Shown in pieces: positions 1,693 to 37,777 of a stretch of DNA of 64,000 bases. The first letter of the stretch is position 1. The number at the start of each line of letters is the position of its first letter. The notes under the pieces are model-generated. The model had not been told where the DNA came from. It did no database searches and worked only from the letters and a program-made list of their open reading frames with translations. Made by a program: the position numbers and the translations under genes. Source of the DNA: Gardnerella vaginalis ATCC 14018 = JCM 11026. Its GTDB lineage: Bacteria; Actinomycetota; Actinomycetes; Actinomycetales; Bifidobacteriaceae. The DNA lies in NCBI RefSeq assembly GCF_001042655.1, contig NZ_AP012332.1:620001-684000 (forward strand). The letters are read 5' to 3'.

Positions 1693-2802
1693 TTATTTAC
1701 TGGCAAACATATCTTTCGCATACTGGCGAATATCATCTGGATTTATCATATTGTATTTTTCTTTTATTTTTGTGAAGTATTCGCCAATTATCTTTTTGCT
1801 GATTATTTTATTTGATGAATCATTAGTTTTTAGATTTCCGCGAGTAAGTATCCAAGGCTCCTCATGATGCGTAAATCGTTCAAGTTCTTTACCGCTGTAG
1901 CAGCAAAGATTATCAATAACGCTATCGCATACTGCTTTTTCGGTAGCTGATAGTGTGGTTGTTAGTTCTGATGTAAATAATGTCACATCACTTTTTTGAA
2001 CATGTTTGTAATCCGCTAATTTTTCTGATGATTTAATTCCTGATATTTCTGTTGTCGGTGAATCTATTGGAGTAAAAGTGTAGTCTTTATAACGCAAATA
2101 GACGTCTTTATATACAGGTCCATGAATCCATGCTTGACAATCATCGGTAAATATGAATGATTTATAAAAAGCGAAATAAAAACCCTGAATGTAGTATAAG
2201 GATTTTTGCAAGGCTAGGGTAGTTATATCCTCACACTTTATAAGCAAGTATTGTATTACATTGTTTATTTTGTCACTCGACTTATTGCCATCAAAGTTAT
2301 TGTTTGCAAAGTTATTTTGTAATTCGCGTATTAGTTTTTGTGTTGCTTTATAACTTTTTTCGTAACTAATTGCAGATTTCAGATTATCCTTATTGCTGAT
2401 TAATAATTGCAAGTAATATTTCGGATCATTATAAATGCGTAGCAAAATATCAGAATATTGTTTTGAAGGAATGTCTCCGTCTGCAAATCTAGAAAACGTT
2501 TGTTCACCCCAACCGAGAAGCAGTGAAAGTGGACGCTTGCCTATTGAGTATTTAGCAGGTATTTCGTTGATTTTGTCAAGCGGAATAATATTGTTTTCTT
2601 TACGATACTCGTCATACAATGCTCTAAGATTCGCGTCAATAATTTCGGGTACATATACAGCAGAGCCGCATTCTTTGCAGTGCGCTTCTGTGCCAGTGTA
2701 GGAATATTGTTTTCCTTTAATAGATGCAGTCATTGGAACGGATTTTGTTGAGTACTCAACATTATTCCTGCATTCTTCGCAAAATGTCTTATTATCTTTC
2801 AT
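1693..2802 (-). CDS. Antitoxin: MqsA-like zinc finger, HTH and Panacea (SocA/DUF4065) domain
   Basis: This 369-residue protein has three parts. Residues 1-55 carry two CxxC pairs (CEEC, CKEC), as in the zinc-binding domain of MqsA/YgiT. A helix-turn-helix follows around residues 85-130 (LLLGWGEQTFSRF). The C-terminal half, from about residue 185, resembles Panacea/SocA (YYIQGFYFAFY, AWIHGPVYKDVY). Such proteins neutralise a partner toxin and repress their own operon. The gene lies 57 bases downstream of the candidate toxin on the same strand, giving a toxin-first order. The promoter at 3285-3313 probably serves both. A broken copy of its 3' part lies at 10376-10487. The family assignment is strong; neutralisation of this specific toxin is inferred. 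Confidence 0.85.
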   Translation of the reverse strand: MKDNKTFCEECRNNVEYSTKSVPMTASIKGKQYSYTGTEAHCKECGSAVYVPEIIDANLRALYDEYRKENNIIPLDKINEIPAKYSIGKRPLSLLLGWGEQTFSRFADGDIPSKQYSDILLRIYNDPKYYLQLLISNKDNLKSAISYEKSYKATQKLIRELQNNFANNNFDGNKSSDKINNVIQYLLIKCEDITTLALQKSLYYIQGFYFAFYKSFIFTDDCQAWIHGPVYKDVYLRYKDYTFTPIDSPTTEISGIKSSEKLADYKHVQKSDVTLFTSELTTTLSATEKAVCDSVIDNLCCYSGKELERFTHHEEPWILTRGNLKTNDSSNKIISKKIIGEYFTKIKEKYNMINPDDIRQYAKDMFASK

Positions 2803-3753: not shown

Positions 3754-4924
3754 TCTTCTTCTTGCAATTATTTATCTAGCATTTATCAGTTTGGGTTTGC
3801 CTGATGCTCTTTTAGGATCTGCTTGGCCGACTATGAGTCACGATATTGGCGCGCAAATTTCTTGGGCTGGCGGAATATCAATGGTTATTTCTGCAGGAAC
3901 TATTGTTTCTGCTCTACTGAGTGACAGGATGACTAAGCGTTTTGGTGCAGGCAAAGTTACGTTTGTGTCTGTTGCTTTAACTGCATTGGCATTGTTGGGT
4001 TTTTCTTTTGCGCCGAATTATATTGTGCTTATTTTGTTAGCAATCCCGTACGGGCTAGGTGCTGGAGGGGTAGACGCTGCTCTTAATAATTATGTTGCTT
4101 TGCACTACGAAAGCCGTCATATGAGCTGGCTTCACTGCATGTGGGGTATTGGAGCTTCAGCTGGACCTTACGTTATGGGTTTTGCGCTTTCTCACGTATT
4201 GGGATGGTCCGCAGGATATCAGTATATTGCGATTGTTCAAGTGATATTAACTGTAATATTGTTTATAAGTTTGCCATTGTGGAATAATCGTAAAGCACAT
4301 GAATTACAGAAATCTATTCAGATATCTAAAGAATATTCTAAAACGCTATCTTTTGCGGAAGTTTTGCGCATTCCTGGAGCTAAAAATATTCTTATAATGT
4401 TCTTCTGCTACTGTGCTATTGAACAGACTGCAGGATTATGGGCTAGTAGTTACATGGTTTTGTATGGGTCCGTTAGCCGTGTTGTTGCAGCGGGATGGGC
4501 AAGTTTATTTTATGTTGGTATTACAGCAGGACGATTTATAAGCGGATTTTTGACAATGCGTTTTAATGACGAAACCATGATTCGTCTTGGACAACTAGTG
4601 ATGATTCTAGGCATTCTTGTGTTGTTATTGCCATTGCCAAATCATATAGCATTAGTTGCAGGATTTGTGATTATTGGTTTAGGGTGTGCGCCTATTTATC
4701 CATGTGTTATTCACTCTACACCGCATTATTTTGGAGCTGATAAATCACAAGCGATTGTTGGCATGCAAATGGCTAGCGCGTATATTGGATCAATGTTGAT
4801 GCCTGCAATCTTTGGGTTTATTGGTCAAAACGTGTCTATGTCTTTGCTTCCAGTATATTTGATTATTTTGCTATCTATAATGGCGTTTATGCATATGCAA
4901 TTGCTTCGGACTTGCAAAAGTTGA
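3746..4924 (+). CDS. MFS transporter (fucose-permease-like type)
   Basis: This is a protein of about 392 residues with twelve predicted hydrophobic segments, organised as two six-helix halves around a hydrophilic loop near residues 185-205. The loop between helices 2 and 3 carries DRMTKRFGAGK, a major-facilitator signature. The overall pattern (SLGLPDALLGSAWP at the start, GAGGVDAALNNY in helix 4) resembles MFS proteins annotated as sugar or fucose permeases, but the substrate cannot be inferred. I chose the ATG at 3746; a GTG at 3740 is possible. Neither has a clear Shine-Dalgarno, and both lie within the RelB-like remnant, so translation may depend on that upstream ORF. Confidence 0.8.
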   Translation: MINLLLAIIYLAFISLGLPDALLGSAWPTMSHDIGAQISWAGGISMVISAGTIVSALLSDRMTKRFGAGKVTFVSVALTALALLGFSFAPNYIVLILLAIPYGLGAGGVDAALNNYVALHYESRHMSWLHCMWGIGASAGPYVMGFALSHVLGWSAGYQYIAIVQVILTVILFISLPLWNNRKAHELQKSIQISKEYSKTLSFAEVLRIPGAKNILIMFFCYCAIEQTAGLWASSYMVLYGSVSRVVAAGWASLFYVGITAGRFISGFLTMRFNDETMIRLGQLVMILGILVLLLPLPNHIALVAGFVIIGLGCAPIYPCVIHSTPHYFGADKSQAIVGMQMASAYIGSMLMPAIFGFIGQNVSMSLLPVYLIILLSIMAFMHMQLLRTCKS

Positions 4925-5142
4925 GTATGAGAATGTTTTTGTGTGATTGTTGGCTTAATGGTTGTTTGTTTAAGATTTATTAAGCTTATTGTGAGTTTGG
5001 TTACATTTTGTTGAGATTGAAGTTGTAAGTTGTAGAATGTCTGAAGATTCAATGCTGTTAAATGCCTGTATTATACTTGTTTTGGTGTTGATTCCGTTAT
5101 TTTGGTAATTATTCTAGAAAATTTGGTTTTGCGGGAGGAAAA

Positions 5143-7349
5143 ATGAGTAAGAGAACTAACATAATTTTGACTAGCACTATGATGGGTATTGCTACTGCTG
5201 CGTGTGCTTTTTGTGTAGCACAAAGTGCAAATGCTGCCGATACCTCAGTGAGTGATGGTATTAATACAACTGTAAATTCTTCTAACGCAAACTCTTATGC
5301 TACAAATCCTAGTAAAAACCAGCATGGGGGGGGGCTGCTTCCGATAGCACTTCCGTAAAATCCTCTGGAAATATTGTACCTTCTAAGTCTACTGAATCTG
5401 CAAAACCTGCCGAAACCACAAAATCTACTAAATCTTCTAAAGCTTCTGAATCTGTAACTGATGCTGAAAATTCTGAAAATGCTATACTTACACAAACTCT
5501 TATAGATGTAAGCAATACTAATCTTCAAACAAATAATCGTGAATATAGAAGCGTACACGCATCTGCAGAATCTAGGGCAGCTTCAACTGATTCGGGTACT
5601 ATAGATGATGCATCTTTAACTTGGACTCGTGAGGATTTTAATATTACCAAAGATGGGAAGCAGATTGGATATAGACAAGACATTAGTACTCCTACTGGTA
5701 CTGTTAATGAAGTTGTTCCAGGTCTTAACGAAAAAGGACTTGCCAAGCTTAAGAAAAATCCACATATTGTAATTCCAGAAGGTATAGAAGTAATTGGAGA
5801 AGTTGCTTTTACGGGTAAAGCGAAACAAGTTGGCAAAAATCATGAGCATATCGAGGGTGAACATTATATAGAAAGTGTCACTCTTCCGCAATCTCTTAAA
5901 ATCATCGAATACGGTGCGTTCGGCTGGAACAAAATTAAGGGAACTGTTACTATTCCGAAAAGTGTAATTTCAATACATAATGGTGCTTTTGTAGCTAATG
6001 AAATTGAAAAAGTTGTGTTTGAAGGCGTAATTGATGACAAGGGCAAAGAGCACGATTCAGACTCTAAGCCGTATTATCTTTCTGGAATTGGTAGCGATGC
6101 TTTCCAAGGTAATAAAATTACTGAAATTGATGTAAAAGATAATTTGGCTAAGTATCAATTATTCCCATCTAATAATCCGCAGAAGGGCGATTCTGTGTTC
6201 GATAACCAGAATCCTGGAACTTTCACTATTGAAGTAGGAGACGAATATAAAAGTCCTATTAAAATTACGAAAGAAGGTGTCAATCAGAGTATTAATGTAG
6301 TGGAAGGATTCAAAGAAGATGGTACTCCAGTACAGATTGAAAATTCATCTTATTTTAAGAAGAATAAAGAAGGCAAATATATAGCAGTAAAATCTGGCAA
6401 GCTTGAAGGTCAGTGCCTGTTTTACGATATTATCAACGGACAATTTAGGATAATTGGTATTTCGCACTTTACCTACAACATTGTTCCTAAAACTAAGATC
6501 TACAAAGTCACTTTTGTGAATGATAGCAATGAAAATTATGCTTCTGTGCAAGTTAAGGAAAACAAAAGCATAAGTGAAAATAGTGTTGACAATCAGAAAA
6601 TGCCTAAGAATCCTTCTAAGAAAGGTTACACTTTTAGAGAGTGGAATGCAGATTCTACAGGTAAGGATAAAAGCAAAATATTTACTGAAAAAACTACAGT
6701 AAAGGGTGACATAACAGTTTATGCTATTTATGATTTAAATGCGACTGTTATGAATGTTGCTCCAACTCTTACATTGCAGGATAAAACTATTACCGTTGGT
6801 GATTCTCTTGATTTAAATAGTCTTGTTGTATCTGCTACAGATCCTGAAGATGGAGACCTAAAAAATGAGGTTAAGATTACTGATAATGGTGGTTTTGATA
6901 ATACAAAGCTTGGCGTTTATGAAGTGACATTTACTTTATCTGATAAAGGGAAGGCAAGTGTAACTAAGACTGCTACTGTTACAGTTGTTAAGAAACCAAC
7001 GCCATCTCCTGTTCCAACACCGACCCCAGATCCTGAGTCAATACCAGTTCCTGATGTTCCTGGTGGTTTGTGGATTCCTCTTCCTGAGATTGTTCCTGAG
7101 AATCCAGAGTATTCTGTTGTTGAGCAGCCTGTGTTGAATCCTGTTCATTCTTCGGATAAGCCTGTGGAGCATTCTGTTGAGCAGCATTTTAAAGCTGTTG
7201 ATGCTGGTGAAGCTTATAATGCTAAGGCTCCTGCTAAGCATTTGCCTGATACTGGTGTTTCAGCAACTTCAACATTTGTGATTTCAATCATATCCCTTTT
7301 CGCTGGTTTTTCTAGTTTGCTTGCTGGAATAGCTAAACGCAAAAATTAG
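5143..7349 (+). CDS. Phase-variable LPXTG surface protein with BspA-type LRR, currently out of frame (OFF)
   Basis: The gene starts with a Sec signal peptide (MSKRTNIILTS ... AQSANA) behind a GGGAGG Shine-Dalgarno. A G9 tract at codons 62-64 then shifts the frame and translation ends at 5358 (71 residues). The other frame is open without a stop from the tract to 7349 and contains no ATG, GTG or TTG before 6015, so restart is unlikely. With G10 or G7 the product would be about 735 residues: signal peptide, Ser/Lys/Thr-rich linker, BspA-like leucine-rich repeats (about 180-350 of the ON protein), an InlB-type beta repeat (YKVTFVNDSN to YAIYDL), a DUF5011-like domain, a proline-rich wall-spanner, the LPDTG anchor (7245-7259) and a membrane tail. 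The rest of the gene shows no decay, so I read it as a contingency gene in the OFF state rather than a dead pseudogene. Confidence 0.85.
5326..5334 (+). repeat. Poly-G tract, G9 (OFF state)
   Basis: Nine consecutive G lie 183 bases after the ATG of the surface gene. Tract lengths with n = 1 modulo 3 (7, 10) restore the long frame; nine gives the early stop at 5356-5358. Homopolymer tracts of this length are classic substrates for slipped-strand mispairing. Confidence 0.9.
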
Positions 7350-7385
7350 TATTGCATTTATGAATGTTTTGAGCGAATGCTGATA

Positions 7386-7420
7386 ATTTCCCTCTGATGT
7401 TTTATATATCAGGGGGAAAT
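7386..7420 (+). terminator. Terminator-like hairpin after second surface gene
   Basis: The arms ATTTCCCTCTGAT (7386-7398) and ATCAGGGGGAAAT (7408-7420) form a 13-base stem with one wobble pair and a 9-base loop. The poly-U tail is weak. Its CAGGGGGAA core matches the hairpins after the other two surface genes. Confidence 0.65.
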
Positions 7421-7592
7421 TCGTTACTATCGTATTGTCTACTTTCAAGCAAATATTGTGTGCATCTACTTATATTTAATGTTTATTTATTGTATAATCA
7501 AAAGTGTTTATAAGTTTTGTGGATTTAAGCTTTGCTTAATGGTTGTTTGTACAATTTATGTAATTTTATGAGTTTTTAGTGAAGAGGCTAAA

Positions 7593-10247
7593 ATGAATAA
7601 AAAAACTGCAATCGTGTTGTCAACGACGATGATGAGTATTGCTACTGCGGCTTGCGCTTTTTGCATGGCTCAAACTGCGAATGCGTCTGAAAATAATTCT
7701 GCATCAGATGTGAAGCAGAATGTCACTAGTGTTGATTTTTCTAATGGGGGGGGGGCTTTCCCTGGTGATTTAGCAAAGTCACAAAAATCTGTAAAATCAC
7801 AAGAAAATGTGCAGAATGATATATCTGCAAAGTCGCGCGATTTGGCGCAGTCACATGCTTCTAAACAGTCACAAGAAATTATTAGAAAACAGAAGTCTGA
7901 TTCTGAAGATCATGAATCTAACTTTGCTAATGCTGATCCTTCCAGTAGTGAAACTAGGTTGACATCTTCCTCTGACTATAGTGGTTCTGTTGCCGATAAC
8001 AAAGCTGATAAAAGAAATGATCCTACTGATGCGGATAAACCAAAAAACGATGAAGTAAGTACACAAAAATCAGTTAAAGCAGCAAAAGATGATAGGGCGT
8101 CAACAGATTCTACAAATAATGGCGAGAAGAAAAGCGAAGTTAAGCCTAATAAAGATGGCATATATGATTTTAGTAATGACAAGAATGTAACCAATCCGTT
8201 CCCGAATGTTATTACACCTGCTGAAGTCAAAGAGCTGCAGGATAAAACAACATCTGTTAGACCTCTGCCTTCTATTCAAAAGATTTTTTATACGCCTTAT
8301 GGCAAGAAATTTTCTGTAGAGAATGGTCAAGCATCTGGCGATACTAGAAGTATTAATGAGATTATCAATACATATAATGGCAGGCTTGGAAGAGTTGATA
8401 CATTCATATTTTTCCCGCGGGTTGATAAAGAAAGTGTATATACTGCCGATGGTCAATTTTACCCATACAGATCATCCCGCGAGCTAAAAAATCCAGATGG
8501 ATCAGCAGATTTTGACTTTAATAAAGCTCCCGACAATAAGATCTCATACAGGCTCGAGGTAAATGGGAAGCTTATTGGATCCAATTTGGCTGATAAGACA
8601 AATATCACAGTATATATGAGAAAGAACCAAACGTTTATTCATGTTGTTATGGAGGGTGACAACACTCATGAAGCTATTTTTGGCTATGAAGGATTTAATC
8701 ATGAAGACTCATCTGGAATTTTTGGATATGTCGCCTTTCTACCTGAATGTGGCGCGCAATTTCACTTTGTAGATGATTTGCAATATCGCAAGGCAGCAAA
8801 CATTAAAGGGAATGATGATCTTCCACAACGTAGTTCTGGTGAAGCTGATAGGTTCTCTACTAAACCGTTTACCAAGTTGGATTTATCCGATTTGTCTGAC
8901 GCGAAAAATATTTCCAAAGTTAGGTTTGGTAATAATCAGGTTGTCAGAAATATGTATACGCCTCTTCTAAGCTACGAAGGCGATCCCAAGAAAGATTCTA
9001 TTAAGCGCCCAACTATGGAAGAGCTTAAAAACACGCAAATCACTGGTTATTTGTATTACAGTAATGATATAGACACGCCAAAAGACGGTACTTTTACTAC
9101 TAAAAATGCTGACAAAAAACCTGGAAATTTCAATTACGGTATTGTTCGAGATAAAGATGACAATCAACTAAATACAAAGCATTATTATGTGACATTTAGA
9201 CCAATTCCTACTCAGCTTGTTGTGCGATACAAAGATTTGCAAAACAAGATCGAGAGTGGTAAGAAATTTGGACTTTACGTTGGCGATAAGCAAATTGCTG
9301 GTGATTTCAAGTCATCTGAGTCTAGCGCAGCTCCAGAGTTAAACGCATTACAATCAATGATAACAAATAAAAATACGGCTTTGCTTAGTGAAGCTGCTGG
9401 TTATCTTTCCAATGGTTTTGCTTATTTGTCTCCTGGAAACTACATCGTAAAGTCTGCTGCTGAAGCGCCTACAAACTATGAGTGGGTTGTTGAACCAGAA
9501 AATTCAGCAGATATTAATAGCGCTACAATTGATGCAAAATTTAATATTGCGATTCATAAGGATAACTCAATTTCTACTCAAAAAGTTGTTACTTTTGTGT
9601 TGAGAAGAAAGATTGCTACCGTCAAATTTATAAATGATGATGACAAGAAACCGTATGCTACTGTGAAAGTTCAGCAAGGTCTCTCTATTAGTGGTGATGG
9701 TTTAACTGATCAGTCTATGCCAGCTAATCCTACTAAAGCTGGTTTTACTTTTAATGGTTGGTATAAGGATAAAAATGGAACTGGGGATGCGTTTACTGCG
9801 TCCACAATTGTAAGCGAGGATACTACTGTTTACGCTATTTATACGCAAATACCTCCTGCACCTACACCTGAGCCAACTCCTGAACCAACGCCAACGCCGA
9901 CTCCTATGCCTGAGCCAGATGTGACTCCTGAATCTGAGCCGAAGCCTGTTCCTGATGTTCCTGACGATTCGTGGATTCCTGTTCCTGAGATTGTTCCTGA
10001 GAATCCAGAGTATTCTGTTGTTGAGCAGCCTGTGTTGAATCCTGTTCATTCTTCGGATAAGCCGGTGGAGCATTCTGTTGAGCAGAGTTTTAAAGCTGTT
10101 GATGCTGGTGAGGATTACAATGTTAAGGCTCCTGCTAAGCATTTGCCTGATACTGGTGTTTCACTGGTTATGTCTATAAGTGCTTTGTTTGTGTCTTTGT
10201 TTGCTGGTTTTGGTTTGTCTATGTTCAAGTCTCGCCGCAAGCATTAA
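7593..10247 (+). CDS. Phase-variable LPXTG surface protein, in frame (ON)
   Basis: This 884-residue protein starts with a signal peptide nearly identical to that of the gene at 5143 (MNKKTAIVLSTTMM ... AQTANA). A G10 tract at codons 52-55 reads through as GGGA. A long Ser/Lys/Asp-rich, probably disordered region follows (to about residue 190), then a globular part shared with the first surface protein (AQFHFVDDLQYRK near residue 390; KHYYVTFRPIPTQL near 527). An InlB-type beta repeat lies at about 669-750, then a Pro-rich wall-spanner, LPDTG (10144-10158) and a membrane anchor with basic tail. It should be exported by Sec and linked to the wall by sortase. No sortase gene lies in the window. 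Binding target unknown. Confidence 0.9.
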   Translation: MNKKTAIVLSTTMMSIATAACAFCMAQTANASENNSASDVKQNVTSVDFSNGGGAFPGDLAKSQKSVKSQENVQNDISAKSRDLAQSHASKQSQEIIRKQKSDSEDHESNFANADPSSSETRLTSSSDYSGSVADNKADKRNDPTDADKPKNDEVSTQKSVKAAKDDRASTDSTNNGEKKSEVKPNKDGIYDFSNDKNVTNPFPNVITPAEVKELQDKTTSVRPLPSIQKIFYTPYGKKFSVENGQASGDTRSINEIINTYNGRLGRVDTFIFFPRVDKESVYTADGQFYPYRSSRELKNPDGSADFDFNKAPDNKISYRLEVNGKLIGSNLADKTNITVYMRKNQTFIHVVMEGDNTHEAIFGYEGFNHEDSSGIFGYVAFLPECGAQFHFVDDLQYRKAANIKGNDDLPQRSSGEADRFSTKPFTKLDLSDLSDAKNISKVRFGNNQVVRNMYTPLLSYEGDPKKDSIKRPTMEELKNTQITGYLYYSNDIDTPKDGTFTTKNADKKPGNFNYGIVRDKDDNQLNTKHYYVTFRPIPTQLVVRYKDLQNKIESGKKFGLYVGDKQIAGDFKSSESSAAPELNALQSMITNKNTALLSEAAGYLSNGFAYLSPGNYIVKSAAEAPTNYEWVVEPENSADINSATIDAKFNIAIHKDNSISTQKVVTFVLRRKIATVKFINDDDKKPYATVKVQQGLSISGDGLTDQSMPANPTKAGFTFNGWYKDKNGTGDAFTASTIVSEDTTVYAIYTQIPPAPTPEPTPEPTPTPTPMPEPDVTPESEPKPVPDVPDDSWIPVPEIVPENPEYSVVEQPVLNPVHSSDKPVEHSVEQSFKAVDAGEDYNVKAPAKHLPDTGVSLVMSISALFVSLFAGFGLSMFKSRRKH
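7746..7755 (+). repeat. Poly-G tract, G10 (ON state)
   Basis: Ten consecutive G lie 153 bases after the ATG. Codons 52-54 are GGG and the last G begins the Ala codon GCT. Loss or gain of one G would end translation early. It sits at the equivalent place to the G9 tract of the neighbouring paralogue. Confidence 0.9.
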
Positions 10248-10374
10248 ATATGTGTGTAGTAGGTTGATTTTATGTAAGAATCTAGTTATGTTGTGTTGAT
10301 ATTGTGATTCAAGAATTCCCCCTGTTGTGTAACTTGTATGGTTGTTTGCAGGGGGAATTTGATTTTATTGTGTT
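9909..10374 (+). repeat. Segmental duplication, copy B (surface-gene 3' end plus terminator)
   Basis: This is nearly identical to 1201-1683: wall-spanning region, LPDTG tail, 3' flank and hairpin. It then joins, with a deletion of about 118 bases relative to copy A at a short T-run, to a fragment of the antitoxin gene (10376-10487). Confidence 0.85.
10315..10358 (+). terminator. Terminator-like hairpin after third surface gene
   Basis: The arms ATTCCCCCTG (10315-10324) and CAGGGGGAAT (10349-10358) pair perfectly with a 24-base loop and a T-rich 3' flank. It is part of the duplicated segment. It may also terminate topoisomerase transcription arriving from the other strand. Confidence 0.6.
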
Positions 10375-10375
10375 T

Positions 10376-10487
10376 TTGCTGATTATTTTATTTGATGAAT
10401 CATCAGTTTTTAGATTGCCGCGAGTAAGTATCCAAGGCTCCTCATGATGTGTGAATCGTTCAAGTTCTTTACCACTGTAGCAACAAA
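10376..10487 (-). pseudogene. Fragment of the Panacea-type antitoxin gene
   Basis: On the minus strand this encodes YSGKELERFTHHEEPW followed by LTRGNLKTDDSSNKI, almost identical to residues near 300-340 of the antitoxin at 1693-2802. The fragment has no 5' part and has lost about 33 C-terminal codons through a deletion whose junction lies in a T-run. It ends 26 bases from the topoisomerase stop codon. It is a by-product of the surface-gene duplication and very unlikely to be functional. Confidence 0.8.
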
Positions 10488-10512
10488 ATCGCAACTATAG
10501 CAGTAAAGATGA

Positions 10513-13182
10513 TTACCCAATATGCGCAATTGGGGAAACTAACTCGGTTCCTGAAGCGTCTCTTCGCATATCTGGCTTAGGTAGCTCTACGTTCGCTCCA
10601 CGTTGTGTAGTCGCGTAAAGCGGATAGTTTCCAACGTATGCTGCCAAAATCGTGTTTTGCCCCTTAAGGAATCGCTGTGATCGCACGCCTCCGGTGCCGC
10701 GACCCTTTGTAGGGTACATTTCTAGCGGCGTAATCTTTGCAGCTCCGTTTTCTGTTCCAGCAAGCGCGTCGCTATCTCCAGCAAGAGTGAATACTACGCT
10801 TCCAGAAGCAGAAAATAGACCATTTTCGCCCTCTTCGTAATTCCATTCAACATCATTTTTAGCAACTACAGCAAAAGCAGAAACAGTGCATTCTTCATTA
10901 AGCCTAATTCCTGCCATTCCTGCAGAGCTTCGCCCCTGCGCACGCACTTGCTTTGCATCGAATGTAAGTAGGGAAGAATCGCTGCTTATAAACACAAGCC
11001 TATCTTCATCATTAGCAAGTGCTGCATTAATTACTGAATCGTTGTCTTTTAAGTCAATAATGCTCCAAGAATCCATTGTTGTTGGTGATTCAAAATTCCA
11101 TCGTTTTACAACGCCATTCTTTGTTCCGATTGCGAGAGGAGTTTTAGAATCAGATTCGCTCAACGCAATAGCAGCTACGACTTTCTCTCCTCTAATTGGG
11201 TCTGTGCTTTGAGTAGAAGTTAATAATTCGCTTGCTTTAACACCATTGGAAAGAGATTCCGAAACGTTTTCATCTCCTTGATTTAAATGTGGCAAGTCTG
11301 CAACATGCGCTATTACTAATCGCCCTGCGGATGTTATTAAAGCGTATGTTGCTCGCGTAGTAGTAGTAAACACGTTTAAGCATGGAGTGTCAAAGATATT
11401 TGAAGAATGTGATTGCCATCTATTGAATGTTTCAACACTAGTTCTTGCTATAAGCCCAGATGTGCTCAAAGCTACGGCACACGGTTCGTCGCTTAATTGC
11501 AAAGCCGCTGAGGTTGCGTCAGTGTCTCCAGACTTACGAGCGGCGCTTGCGGCTGCTGCAACATCTGCCTGGGCATTTGTCAATTGATTTGCTGCAATAA
11601 CTGCGTCCATAGCTGAATCAGAATTAACTTCTTTACTGTTTTTAGTGCAAACAGGCGTAAAGCTGCCGTCTTCTTGTTCGTCTAAAAGAATAGTTCTGCG
11701 CGGAGTATCCCACTGTTTTACAGCGTAATCCATTTCTGCAATCACAACTTTGTCTAGCTGGCTTGCGGAGCTTAGAATCTCGTTAAGTTCATCTATTTTT
11801 TGCAATAAGTCGTTTTTTTCGCCTTCTAGCTCGATTCGACTCATTTTTGTAAGTCTTCTAAGTCTTAAGTCAAGAATGTATTGCGCTTGAATCTCGTCTA
11901 AATCAAATACGCTAATAAGCTTTGATTTTGCGGTTTCTGCATCTTCGGAAGACCTAATTACTTGAATTACTTCGTCAATGTCTAGCATTGCAAGAAGCAA
12001 TCCTTCTACAAGGTGCAGTCTCTCTTTGGCTTTGTTTAGTCTAAATTCGCTGCGCCTTCTAATAACGGTTCTTCTGTGCAAAATCCACACGTCTAGAAGC
12101 TCTCGAAGACCCATTGTGTGAGGTCTTCCATCAACTAGTGCAACGTTGTTAATCGTAAAGCTTTCTTGCAGCGGAGTGTGCTTAAAAAGTTGCGCAAGAA
12201 CCGCGTTTGGGTCGAATCCTGTTTTTATTTCGATTACGATTCGCGTTCCGTTATGTCTATCTGTTAAGTCTATTGCTCCAGATATTCCGTCTAGTTTGCG
12301 CGCTTTTATGCCTTGAGATATGCGTTCGAGCACGCGCTCTGGTCCAACCATAAATGGTAATTCGGTAACAATAATCGCCTTTTTGCGCGCTGTAACGTTT
12401 TCAATATGCGTTTTCGATCTAGTTGTAAAAGCGCCTCTTCCAGTTTCGTACGCTTCGCGGATTCCACTTCGCCCAATAATTATGCCGCCGCCAGGCCAGT
12501 CTGGTCCTGGAACTATTTGCATTAAATCGTCTAGAGTAGCATTTGGATGCTTCATAACGTATTTTGCTGCAGCTACGACTTCGCCAAGATTGTGAGTAGC
12601 CATATTTGTGGCCATTCCAACTGCGATTCCAGAAGCTCCGTTTACAAGCAAGTTTGGTATAGCGGCAGGCAGAACAGTTGGTTCTTTTAGCTTATTGTCA
12701 TAGTTTGGAGCAAAGTCAACAGTGTCTTCGTTTATATCTGCATTCATTCCAAGTGCTGCTGGAGCTAGTCGCGCTTCCGTGTACCTAGATGCTGCAGGAC
12801 CGTCGTCTAAGGAACCAAAGTTTCCATGACCGTCAACCAGAGGGAGTCTAAGAGAAAATGGCTGAGCCAAACGCACCATTGCCTCGTAAATTGCGGAATC
12901 TCCATGCGGATGCAGTTTTCCCATAACTTCGCCTACAACGCGAGCAGACTTCATGTATGCGTGTTCTGGGGTAAGGTTCATGTTTCCCATTTGATACACG
13001 ATTCGGCGCTGTACAGGCTTCATTCCATCTCTAGCGTCTGGCAATGCGCGCGCGTAAATCACCGAGTATGCGTATTCGAGGAATGATTTGCTCATTTCTT
13101 CGTTAAGCGGCGTTTCAACAATGTTTTCCTTAACCTTTCTAGGGTCGAAGGTTTGTTTTGCTGATTTGCTGCGTGAAGGCAT
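10513..13182 (-). CDS. parC: DNA topoisomerase IV / gyrase-type subunit A
   Basis: This 889-residue type IIA topoisomerase A subunit cuts and rejoins duplex DNA to decatenate or relax chromosomes with a B subunit encoded elsewhere. The catalytic tyrosine is Tyr134 (AASRYTEAR). The quinolone-determining region reads [12 protein letters not shown] with Ser96 and Glu100, the residues expected in quinolone-susceptible enzymes. The winged-helix and tower regions occupy about 30-480, with a beta-pinwheel C-terminal domain after about 520. The gyrase box is degenerate (KGRGTGGV), which favours a ParC-type over a GyrA-type role. The ATG at 13182 follows AAGGAG. Its 3' end abuts the antitoxin fragment, so the surface-gene duplication was inserted right next to this core gene. 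Confidence 0.85.
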
Positions 13183-37749: not shown

Positions 37750-37777
37750 CGCGGTGATTTTCACCGCGTTTTTTTTT
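37750..37777 (+). terminator. Terminator after tRNA-Arg
   Basis: CGCGGTGA (37750-37757) pairs with TCACCGCG (37761-37768), followed by nine T. Confidence 0.93.

What the first reader, a model, noticed from the sequence alone, without database searches (positions are those of the whole stretch)
5143..7349. Surface protein gene switched OFF by a G9 tract
The signal-peptide frame and the 2-kb downstream frame are joined only by a G9 tract at 5326-5334. G9 gives a 71-residue product; G10 or G7 would give about 735 residues with BspA-type LRR, InlB-type repeat, DUF5011-like domain and LPDTG anchor. The downstream frame has no stop and no start codon before 6015, so it depends on the tract. The lack of decay elsewhere points to reversible switching.
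Basis: partly seen in the sequence, partly recalled or inferred. Interest (0 to 1): 0.85.

Follow-up and report, generated by a model that had tools for sequence, protein, structure and literature searches.

The report
Phase-variable Gardnerella surface-protein gene, currently OFF
A vaginal Gardnerella bacterium carries a cell-surface protein gene that a run of nine Gs puts out of frame; it is one of four similar neighbouring genes, each with such a run, which look like independent on/off switches for what the cell shows on its surface.

Summary
A signal-peptide frame (5143-5358) and an open LPXTG-protein frame (to 7349) are separated only by a G9 tract at 5326-5334. The window is from Gardnerella. 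The gene is third of four LPXTG paralogues between two topoisomerase genes, each with a G or C tract shortly after a related signal peptide; three are out of frame in this assembly, one in frame.
Of 76 database relatives, 44 have the signal peptide in frame, 23 start at an ATG reading into the tract in a second frame, 7 start beyond it, 2 are partial. Several have identical downstream protein in different frame states. Downstream parts show dN/dS 0.22-0.41, also between out-of-frame copies. In the same interval of 11 chosen genomes, 15 tract-bearing genes were seen, 5 in frame.
Best reading: reversible slipped-strand phase variation. Tract-linked variation of Gardnerella surface proteins was published in 2024 and the same layout was tested for B. 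breve pili, so this is a new, well-documented member of a known kind. Switching at this tract was not measured. Side finding: most other G tracts of this genome look like promoter spacers.

The parts
5134..5138 (+). Shine-Dalgarno GGAGG, 4 nt before the start codon
5143..5358 (+). gene C upstream frame: signal peptide (MSKRTNIILTSTMMGIATAACAFCVAQSANA, by eye) and serine/asparagine-rich start, 71 aa, stops just past the tract
5326..5334 (+). G9 tract, 183 nt after the start codon; the proposed switch
5337..7349 (+). gene C downstream frame, 670 aa, no stop, first ATG/GTG/TTG at 6015 and that without Shine-Dalgarno
5865..6152 (+). BspA-type leucine-rich repeat region (PF13306)
6501..6725 (+). 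Listeria-Bacteroides (InlB B-type) repeat (PF09479)
6777..6986 (+). Ig-like domain Big_3 (PF07523)
7242..7256 (+). LPDTG sorting motif, followed by membrane stretch and KRKN tail
7593..10247 (+). gene D: paralogue, 884 aa, related signal peptide and anchor, in frame (ON) in this assembly
7746..7755 (+). G10 tract of gene D, 153 nt after its start codon
1..1548 (+). gene B, 3' part; its start (genome 619354) and G9 tract (619519-619527) lie about 650 and 480 bases before the window; OFF in this assembly
10513..13182 (-). topoisomerase subunit A gene (PF00521; parC by arrangement), downstream border of the array; the subunit B gene is the upstream border at genome 613749-616142

Best explanation
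Gene C encodes a secreted, sortase-anchored surface protein (BspA-type LRR, InlB-type repeat, Ig-like domain; probably an adhesin or antigen). Strand slippage during replication of the G tract moves the signal-peptide frame in and out of register with the rest. In the state held here, translation starts at the strong site at 5143, makes a 71-residue peptide and stops, so no anchored protein is made; daughter cells with another tract length make it. Genes A-D of the array each carry their own tract and should switch independently, giving a mixed surface within a clone. Shown here: anatomy, frame states, selection on the downstream frame, identical downstream proteins in different frame states, recurrence in related genomes. 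Inferred: slippage rate, reversibility in culture, expression, binding function, independence of the four switches.
For: Only two G/C runs of 7 or more in 64 kb, both just inside LPXTG paralogues. Array: genes A (C12), B (G9), C (G9) out of frame, D (G10) in frame. Database: of the 76 best-scoring relatives (P0001-P0076, of 120 listed and 462 found), 44 have the signal peptide in frame, 23 begin at an ATG of a second frame at the tract, 7 begin at starts beyond the tract, 2 are partial; 75 of 76 keep the LPXTG end. Identical downstream protein in different classes: P0006/P0007 673 of 673, P0024 and P0025/P0027 604 of 604, P0026/P0028 606 of 606, P0067/P0069 604 of 604. dN/dS of the parts after the tract: 0.22-0.41 in 13 comparisons of five copies, 0.27-0.38 for gene C against two other out-of-frame copies and 0.29 between those two; gene C upstream of 6015 alone 0.22-0.32; gene A 0.27-0.30 in two comparisons. 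In the interval of 11 genomes: 15 tract-bearing genes in 7 genomes, 5 in frame; 9 of the 10 out-of-frame ones keep a downstream frame of 582-793 aa. The starts of A-D have GAGG or GGAGG; the internal starts checked in A, B and C have none. Four sortase matches in the genome. PMC11287997 (section 11 read): Sanger sequencing of one other tract gave 9 bases in most colonies and 10 in a few; both primers match this genome exactly, 545 bp apart, around the G11 tract at 1305822 (one of the two also matches a second place).
Against: No reads, expression or protein data for this gene. The assembled tract length could be a sequencing error, and so could part of the database frame classes; P0073, one of the frame variants, carries a second frameshift that suggests an error-prone assembly. 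Database rows are cluster entries, not independent strains, and start choice is the gene caller's. dN/dS averages over long divergence and says little about the present state; its highest values (0.41) involve the copy that may be dead (G100). Counter-examples exist: G. swidsinskii (G100) has only G6 and its frame breaks upstream of it, and one of the ten OFF genes (G077, C9) has only 172 aa downstream, so some copies look locked off.
Confidence: 0.88

Rival explanations
1. Sequencing or assembly error: the real tract of this strain has another length and the gene is simply intact here (not exclusive of switching in general).
For: Homopolymers are error-prone; natural uninterrupted copies with the same downstream protein exist (P0002); P0073 has a second frameshift.
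Against: Three frame states recur across many database proteins with otherwise intact sequence; sister genes of this and another genome (G036) show in-frame and out-of-frame tracts side by side; colony Sanger data in print show variation at a similar tract.
Confidence: 0.15
2. A permanently inactivated gene (pseudogene) caught early.
For: Out of frame here; some relatives look locked off (G100; G077 C9).
Against: No stop in 670 codons; dN/dS 0.22-0.41 including pairs of out-of-frame copies; identical downstream proteins are found in frame.
Confidence: 0.05
3. Slippage of RNA polymerase or the ribosome on the tract makes some full-length protein from the OFF gene, so the switch is leaky or not genetic.
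For: A run of nine G is a plausible slippery site (inference); not testable with the tools here.
Against: Tract length itself differs between copies: Gly counts at the tract are 2, 3 or 4 in signal-peptide proteins, and 9 to 12 bases in the 15 genes of the interval. In the B. breve counterpart pili were seen in derivatives with the frames joined in DNA and not in the parent (PMC9187656, section 15).
Confidence: 0.12
4. Two separate genes: a short secreted peptide and a 444-aa protein starting at GTG 6015.
For: Gene callers report such starts (P0001 and four other proteins starting MFEGVI among the 76).
Against: No Shine-Dalgarno found at 6015, no signal peptide there although the protein has a sorting signal, and selection on the stretch 5337-6014 as well (dN/dS 0.22-0.32).
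Confidence: 0.03

Closest known systems
Gardnerella homopolymer tracts linked to surface proteins (PMC11287997, mSphere 2024; abstract, sections 11 and 12 and passages seen)
   Same: Same genus, tracts of 8 or more bases, genes with Rib, GA, InlB B-repeat and LPXTG features, slipped-strand mispairing proposed; one tract shown to vary between colonies.
   Different: In the parts I saw, this gene, the four-gene array and the three frame classes are not described (supplements could not be read). Most G/C tracts were counted as upstream of predicted ORFs, a count that can include OFF intragenic tracts such as that of gene B here.
B. breve sortase-dependent pilus G-tract switch (PMC9187656, Sci Rep 2022; abstract, sections 15 and 21 and passages seen)
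   Same: Related genus; short signal-peptide ORF and long LPXTG ORF separated by an intragenic G tract; internal starts without Shine-Dalgarno.
   Different: There the genes are pilins in clusters with a dedicated sortase; here single non-pilin surface proteins in an array, with sortase genes elsewhere.
Slipped-strand mispairing in Gardnerella sialidase nanH3 (Infect Immun 2021; not held, known here only from its title and a citing sentence)
   Same: Same genus and mechanism by title.
   Different: An enzyme gene; details not seen.
Neisseria Opa genes (introduction passage of PMC11287997; otherwise recalled)
   Same: A family of surface proteins each switched by a repeat in the coding sequence.
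   Different: Pentamer repeats at scattered loci (recalled in part) in a Gram-negative; here G/C homopolymers in an array of a Gram-positive.

Membership tests
Simple-sequence contingency (phase-variable) gene | Hypermutable repeat whose length sets the reading frame | tested here: met
   G9 between two frames, (layout; mutability itself not measured)
Simple-sequence contingency (phase-variable) gene | Different states found in otherwise identical alleles | tested here: met
   protein level; DNA of those strains not held
Simple-sequence contingency (phase-variable) gene | OFF sequence kept under selection | tested here: met
   dN/dS 0.22-0.41
Simple-sequence contingency (phase-variable) gene | High-frequency reversible switching in a clone | not testable with these tools
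   no reads or cultures; length variation between colonies shown for another tract of the genus in PMC11287997
Sortase-anchored (LPXTG) surface protein | Signal peptide, sorting motif, hydrophobic stretch, basic tail | tested here: met
   seen directly; models are marginal: Pfam Gram_pos_anchor 13.8 bits against 20, NCBIfam LPXTG_anchor 15.8 against 15.9
Sortase-anchored (LPXTG) surface protein | Sortase in the genome | tested here: met
   4 matches over cut-off to PF04203
Bifidobacterial pilus G-tract cluster | Pilin cluster with dedicated sortase next to it | tested here: not met
   nearest sortase match is at genome 483871, over 130 kb away; neighbours are MFS, SocA-like and topoisomerase genes
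Internalin | Full internalin family match | tested here: not met
   internalin models match only parts of genes A, B and D, far below cut-off, and not gene C

The most novel reading that the evidence does not exclude
The parE-parC interval of Gardnerella is a dedicated surface-variegation array: paralogues that share a signal-peptide/tract module and an anchor module but differ in the middle, each toggled by its own G or C tract, so that a clone explores up to 2^n surface states. It works beside a second, genome-wide class of switches in which G tracts fill promoter spacers, including a repeated promoter cassette in front of one secreted-protein family.
Probability: 0.5. Interest if true: 0.58.

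Novelty: new member of a known kind. Interest (0 to 1): 0.42.

Why it matters
Surface display in Gardnerella, a key genus in bacterial vaginosis, would be heterogeneous within a clone, and genome annotation hides it: OFF genes are cut into a short peptide and a protein with a doubtful start, and their tracts can be filed as upstream of a gene. The recurring array gives a small defined set of tracts to follow in patients and cultures.

Tried and rejected
Fannyhessea: homologues of Fannyhessea type (one named so, P0119) have GG or GGG inside the signal peptide and odd starts, which hinted at a second, independent switch. The one G9 tract found in the eight loci checked (L100) lies in a gene without a matching signal peptide or anchor, so the idea stays untested.

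The search for related loci in genome contigs gave 3 loci, one useful (G. swidsinskii). The promoter scan of 4900-7800 found 8 sites against 10.6 in shuffles, so I claim no promoter for gene C. Structure prediction was not run: it would not bear on the switch. PMC11410844 (passages only) mentions InlB B-repeat only in its reference list.

A first dN/dS run (0.23-0.34 in nine comparisons) used some frames that began before the tract; it was repeated for gene C and its counterparts with all frames cut after the tract (0.22-0.41), and the latter is quoted.

Choice of genomes: the ten others were nine small genomes with a match plus G025, which had none; at least one further small genome of the genus (G107) was not examined, so the rate of occurrence is biased upward. 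The signal-peptide search used the motif ACAF, so genes with other signal peptides are missed. Rows dropped before the count of 15 tract-bearing genes (18 signal-peptide genes): one in G077 and one in G110 because N runs follow the signal peptide, and G100 because its tract is G6 and lies beyond the break. G105 and G025 have no such gene. One more row (a 33-aa frame near one end of L087) is a chance hit to the motif.

Full report
What is there. At 5143 an ATG with GGAGG four bases upstream opens a frame that encodes a signal peptide (by eye) and ends at 5358 after 71 codons. A G9 tract occupies 5326-5334. After it a different frame is open to 7349: 670 aa with a BspA-type LRR region, an InlB-type repeat, an Ig-like domain and an LPDTG anchor. 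That frame has no ATG, GTG or TTG before 6015, and no Shine-Dalgarno sequence was found before that GTG or before the other-frame ATG at 5297. Runs of nine or more G or C are expected about 0.01 times in this window; there are two, and both lie at a similar place in LPXTG genes.

Where it is. The window is bases 620001-684000 of a 1,667,406-base genome. The closest named proteins are Gardnerella vaginalis, and one comparison genome (G100) has a contig of the same length as one of Gardnerella swidsinskii GS 9838-1 with the matching gene at the same place. So this is Gardnerella, most likely G. vaginalis.

The array. Between a topoisomerase B-subunit gene and a topoisomerase A-subunit gene (taken as parE and parC, since a second such pair lies near genome 6-9 kb) lie four paralogues: A (genome 616361, C12), B (619354, G9), C (this finding) and D (window 7593, G10). 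They share the signal-peptide segment (four copies of a 114-nt repeat, 69-92% identical to the reference copy) and a C-terminal segment (four copies of 300 nt, 72-93%), and differ much in between. The tracts lie 139-183 nt after the start codons. A, B and C are out of frame and D is in frame in this assembly.

Other genomes. Ten further small genomes of the genus were chosen: nine with a match to gene C, and G025 without one. All ten have the two border genes on one contig. In the interval of these and the window's genome, 18 signal-peptide genes of this type were seen; 15 have a tract of nine or more G or C. The 15 lie in 7 genomes (the window's and six others); 5 are in frame and 10 are not, which is the one third expected if frame is left to chance. 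Nine of the ten out-of-frame genes keep a downstream frame of 582-793 aa with a sorting-signal-like end (LPXTG, or LSKTG in two); one (G077, C9) has only 172 aa. G. swidsinskii has lost the long tract and is broken upstream of what remains. So most copies look switchable and a few look dead.

Frame states in the protein database. The search with the 444-aa piece gave 462 proteins, 120 listed. Of the first 76 (P0001-P0076), 44 start with the signal peptide, 23 start at an ATG that reads into the tract in a second frame (MLQILVK... or MGG...), 7 start only beyond the tract, and 2 are partial; 75 keep the LPXTG end. Taking only the part after the tract, several pairs from different classes are identical over 600 or more residues (P0006/P0007, P0024/P0027, P0025/P0027, P0026/P0028, P0067/P0069). 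P0001 (444 aa) differs from P0002 (735 aa) at one of 443 positions. Gly counts at the tract also vary by whole codons (2, 3 or 4 in signal-peptide proteins). These are cluster entries, not independent strains; the sources of P0001, P0002 and P0073 are not shown; some frame differences may be sequencing errors, and P0073 has an extra frameshift of its own.

Selection. Nei-Gojobori dN/dS on the parts after the tracts is 0.22-0.41 in 13 comparisons among gene C and its counterparts in G036, G058, G108 and G100; between two out-of-frame copies of different genomes (G036, G058) it is 0.29; for the stretch 5337-6014 alone, upstream of the alternative start, it is 0.22-0.32. The highest values (0.41) involve the probably dead G100. 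A gene never read in these lineages should drift towards 1.

Mechanism. The most likely account is slipped-strand mispairing at the tract, with translation from the 5143 start giving either a 71-residue peptide or the anchored protein. The genome has four sortase matches, so anchoring is plausible. In B. breve the same layout was tested directly: pilus-like structures were seen in derivatives with the frames joined and not in the parent (PMC9187656, section 15). In Gardnerella, colony Sanger sequencing of one other tract gave 9 or 10 bases (14018: nine colonies and one; AKK101: seven and two; PMC11287997, section 11). The two printed primers match this genome exactly around the G11 tract at 1305822, 545 bp apart against 546 expected in the paper; one of them also matches near 155.7 kb. 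That tract follows the start of another secreted-looking protein and is out of frame here. The paper calls the protein a GA-module protein; my scan of its downstream frame gave only aRib domains, a difference I could not resolve.

Known or new. Phase variation by homopolymer tracts in Gardnerella surface proteins is in print. In the searches made and the parts seen, I did not find this array, this gene or the three frame classes described; supplements could not be read. The paper reports about 70% of G/C tracts upstream of predicted ORFs. Gene B shows how an OFF intragenic tract can be counted so: its first internal start lies about 140 nt after the tract.

Side finding. Of 24 G/C tracts of nine or more in the genome, 5 lie inside genes by same-strand frame analysis and 19 do not. 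Of the 19, 15 are followed at once by TA; the mean -10 match is 3.4 of 6 against 1.8 at random places, and the best -35 match 4.1 against 3.6, the latter a small difference (five of the 19 are copies of one cassette and not independent). Those five share TTGACTTTTTTAAAC-Gn-TATGTT about 130 nt before proteins that begin MMNKKAIAAFAAGATLLAGFAMATPA, signal-peptide-like. With one mismatch allowed the cassette occurs at 19 places in 5 of 112 genomes of the genus, with none for the reversed pattern in any of the 112; G is 9, 10 or 11 (6, 11 and 2 places), and the signal peptide was found behind 16 of 19. This looks like spacer-length promoter switching, a kind known from Neisseria porA (recalled).

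Noticed in passing
genome 51656, 244606, 301919, 1266281(-), 1529178(-) (loci L032, L034, L036, L045, L050): Repeated promoter-like cassette TTGACTTTTTTAAAC-G(9-11)-TATGTT before proteins with the same signal-peptide-like start; with variants, 19 places in 5 of 112 genomes of the genus, none for the reversed pattern. Candidate promoter-spacer phase switch.
   Followed up: partly
19 tracts of the genome outside same-strand genes (loci L032-L050): 15 of 19 abut TA directly, 13 have a TTG-starting best -35 candidate at 17-25 nt; six precede ORFs of over 1200 aa, some with signal-like starts.
   Followed up: partly
L046 3823-3833 (genome 1305822-1305832, minus strand): G11 tract after the start of a secreted-looking aRib-domain protein, out of frame; judging by exact primer matches, it is the tract whose length varied between colonies in PMC11287997.
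   Followed up: partly
proteins P0103-P0104, P0107, P0117, P0119-P0120: Fannyhessea-type homologues have GGG inside the signal peptide (P0079 has GG) and some start in odd places; possibly an independent tract switch in another vaginosis bacterium. DNA not found.
   Followed up: partly
window 1693-2802 (-) and 10309-10494 (-): SocA/Panacea antitoxin-like gene next to gene B and a 61-aa ORF next to gene D that resembles part of its end (by eye), with 93-nt (99%) and 121-nt (93%) repeats at both places; possible trace of a block duplication that built the array.
   Followed up: partly
window 37769-37777: T9 run directly after an inverted repeat (gcggtgattttcaccgc), looks like an ordinary terminator.
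   Followed up: no
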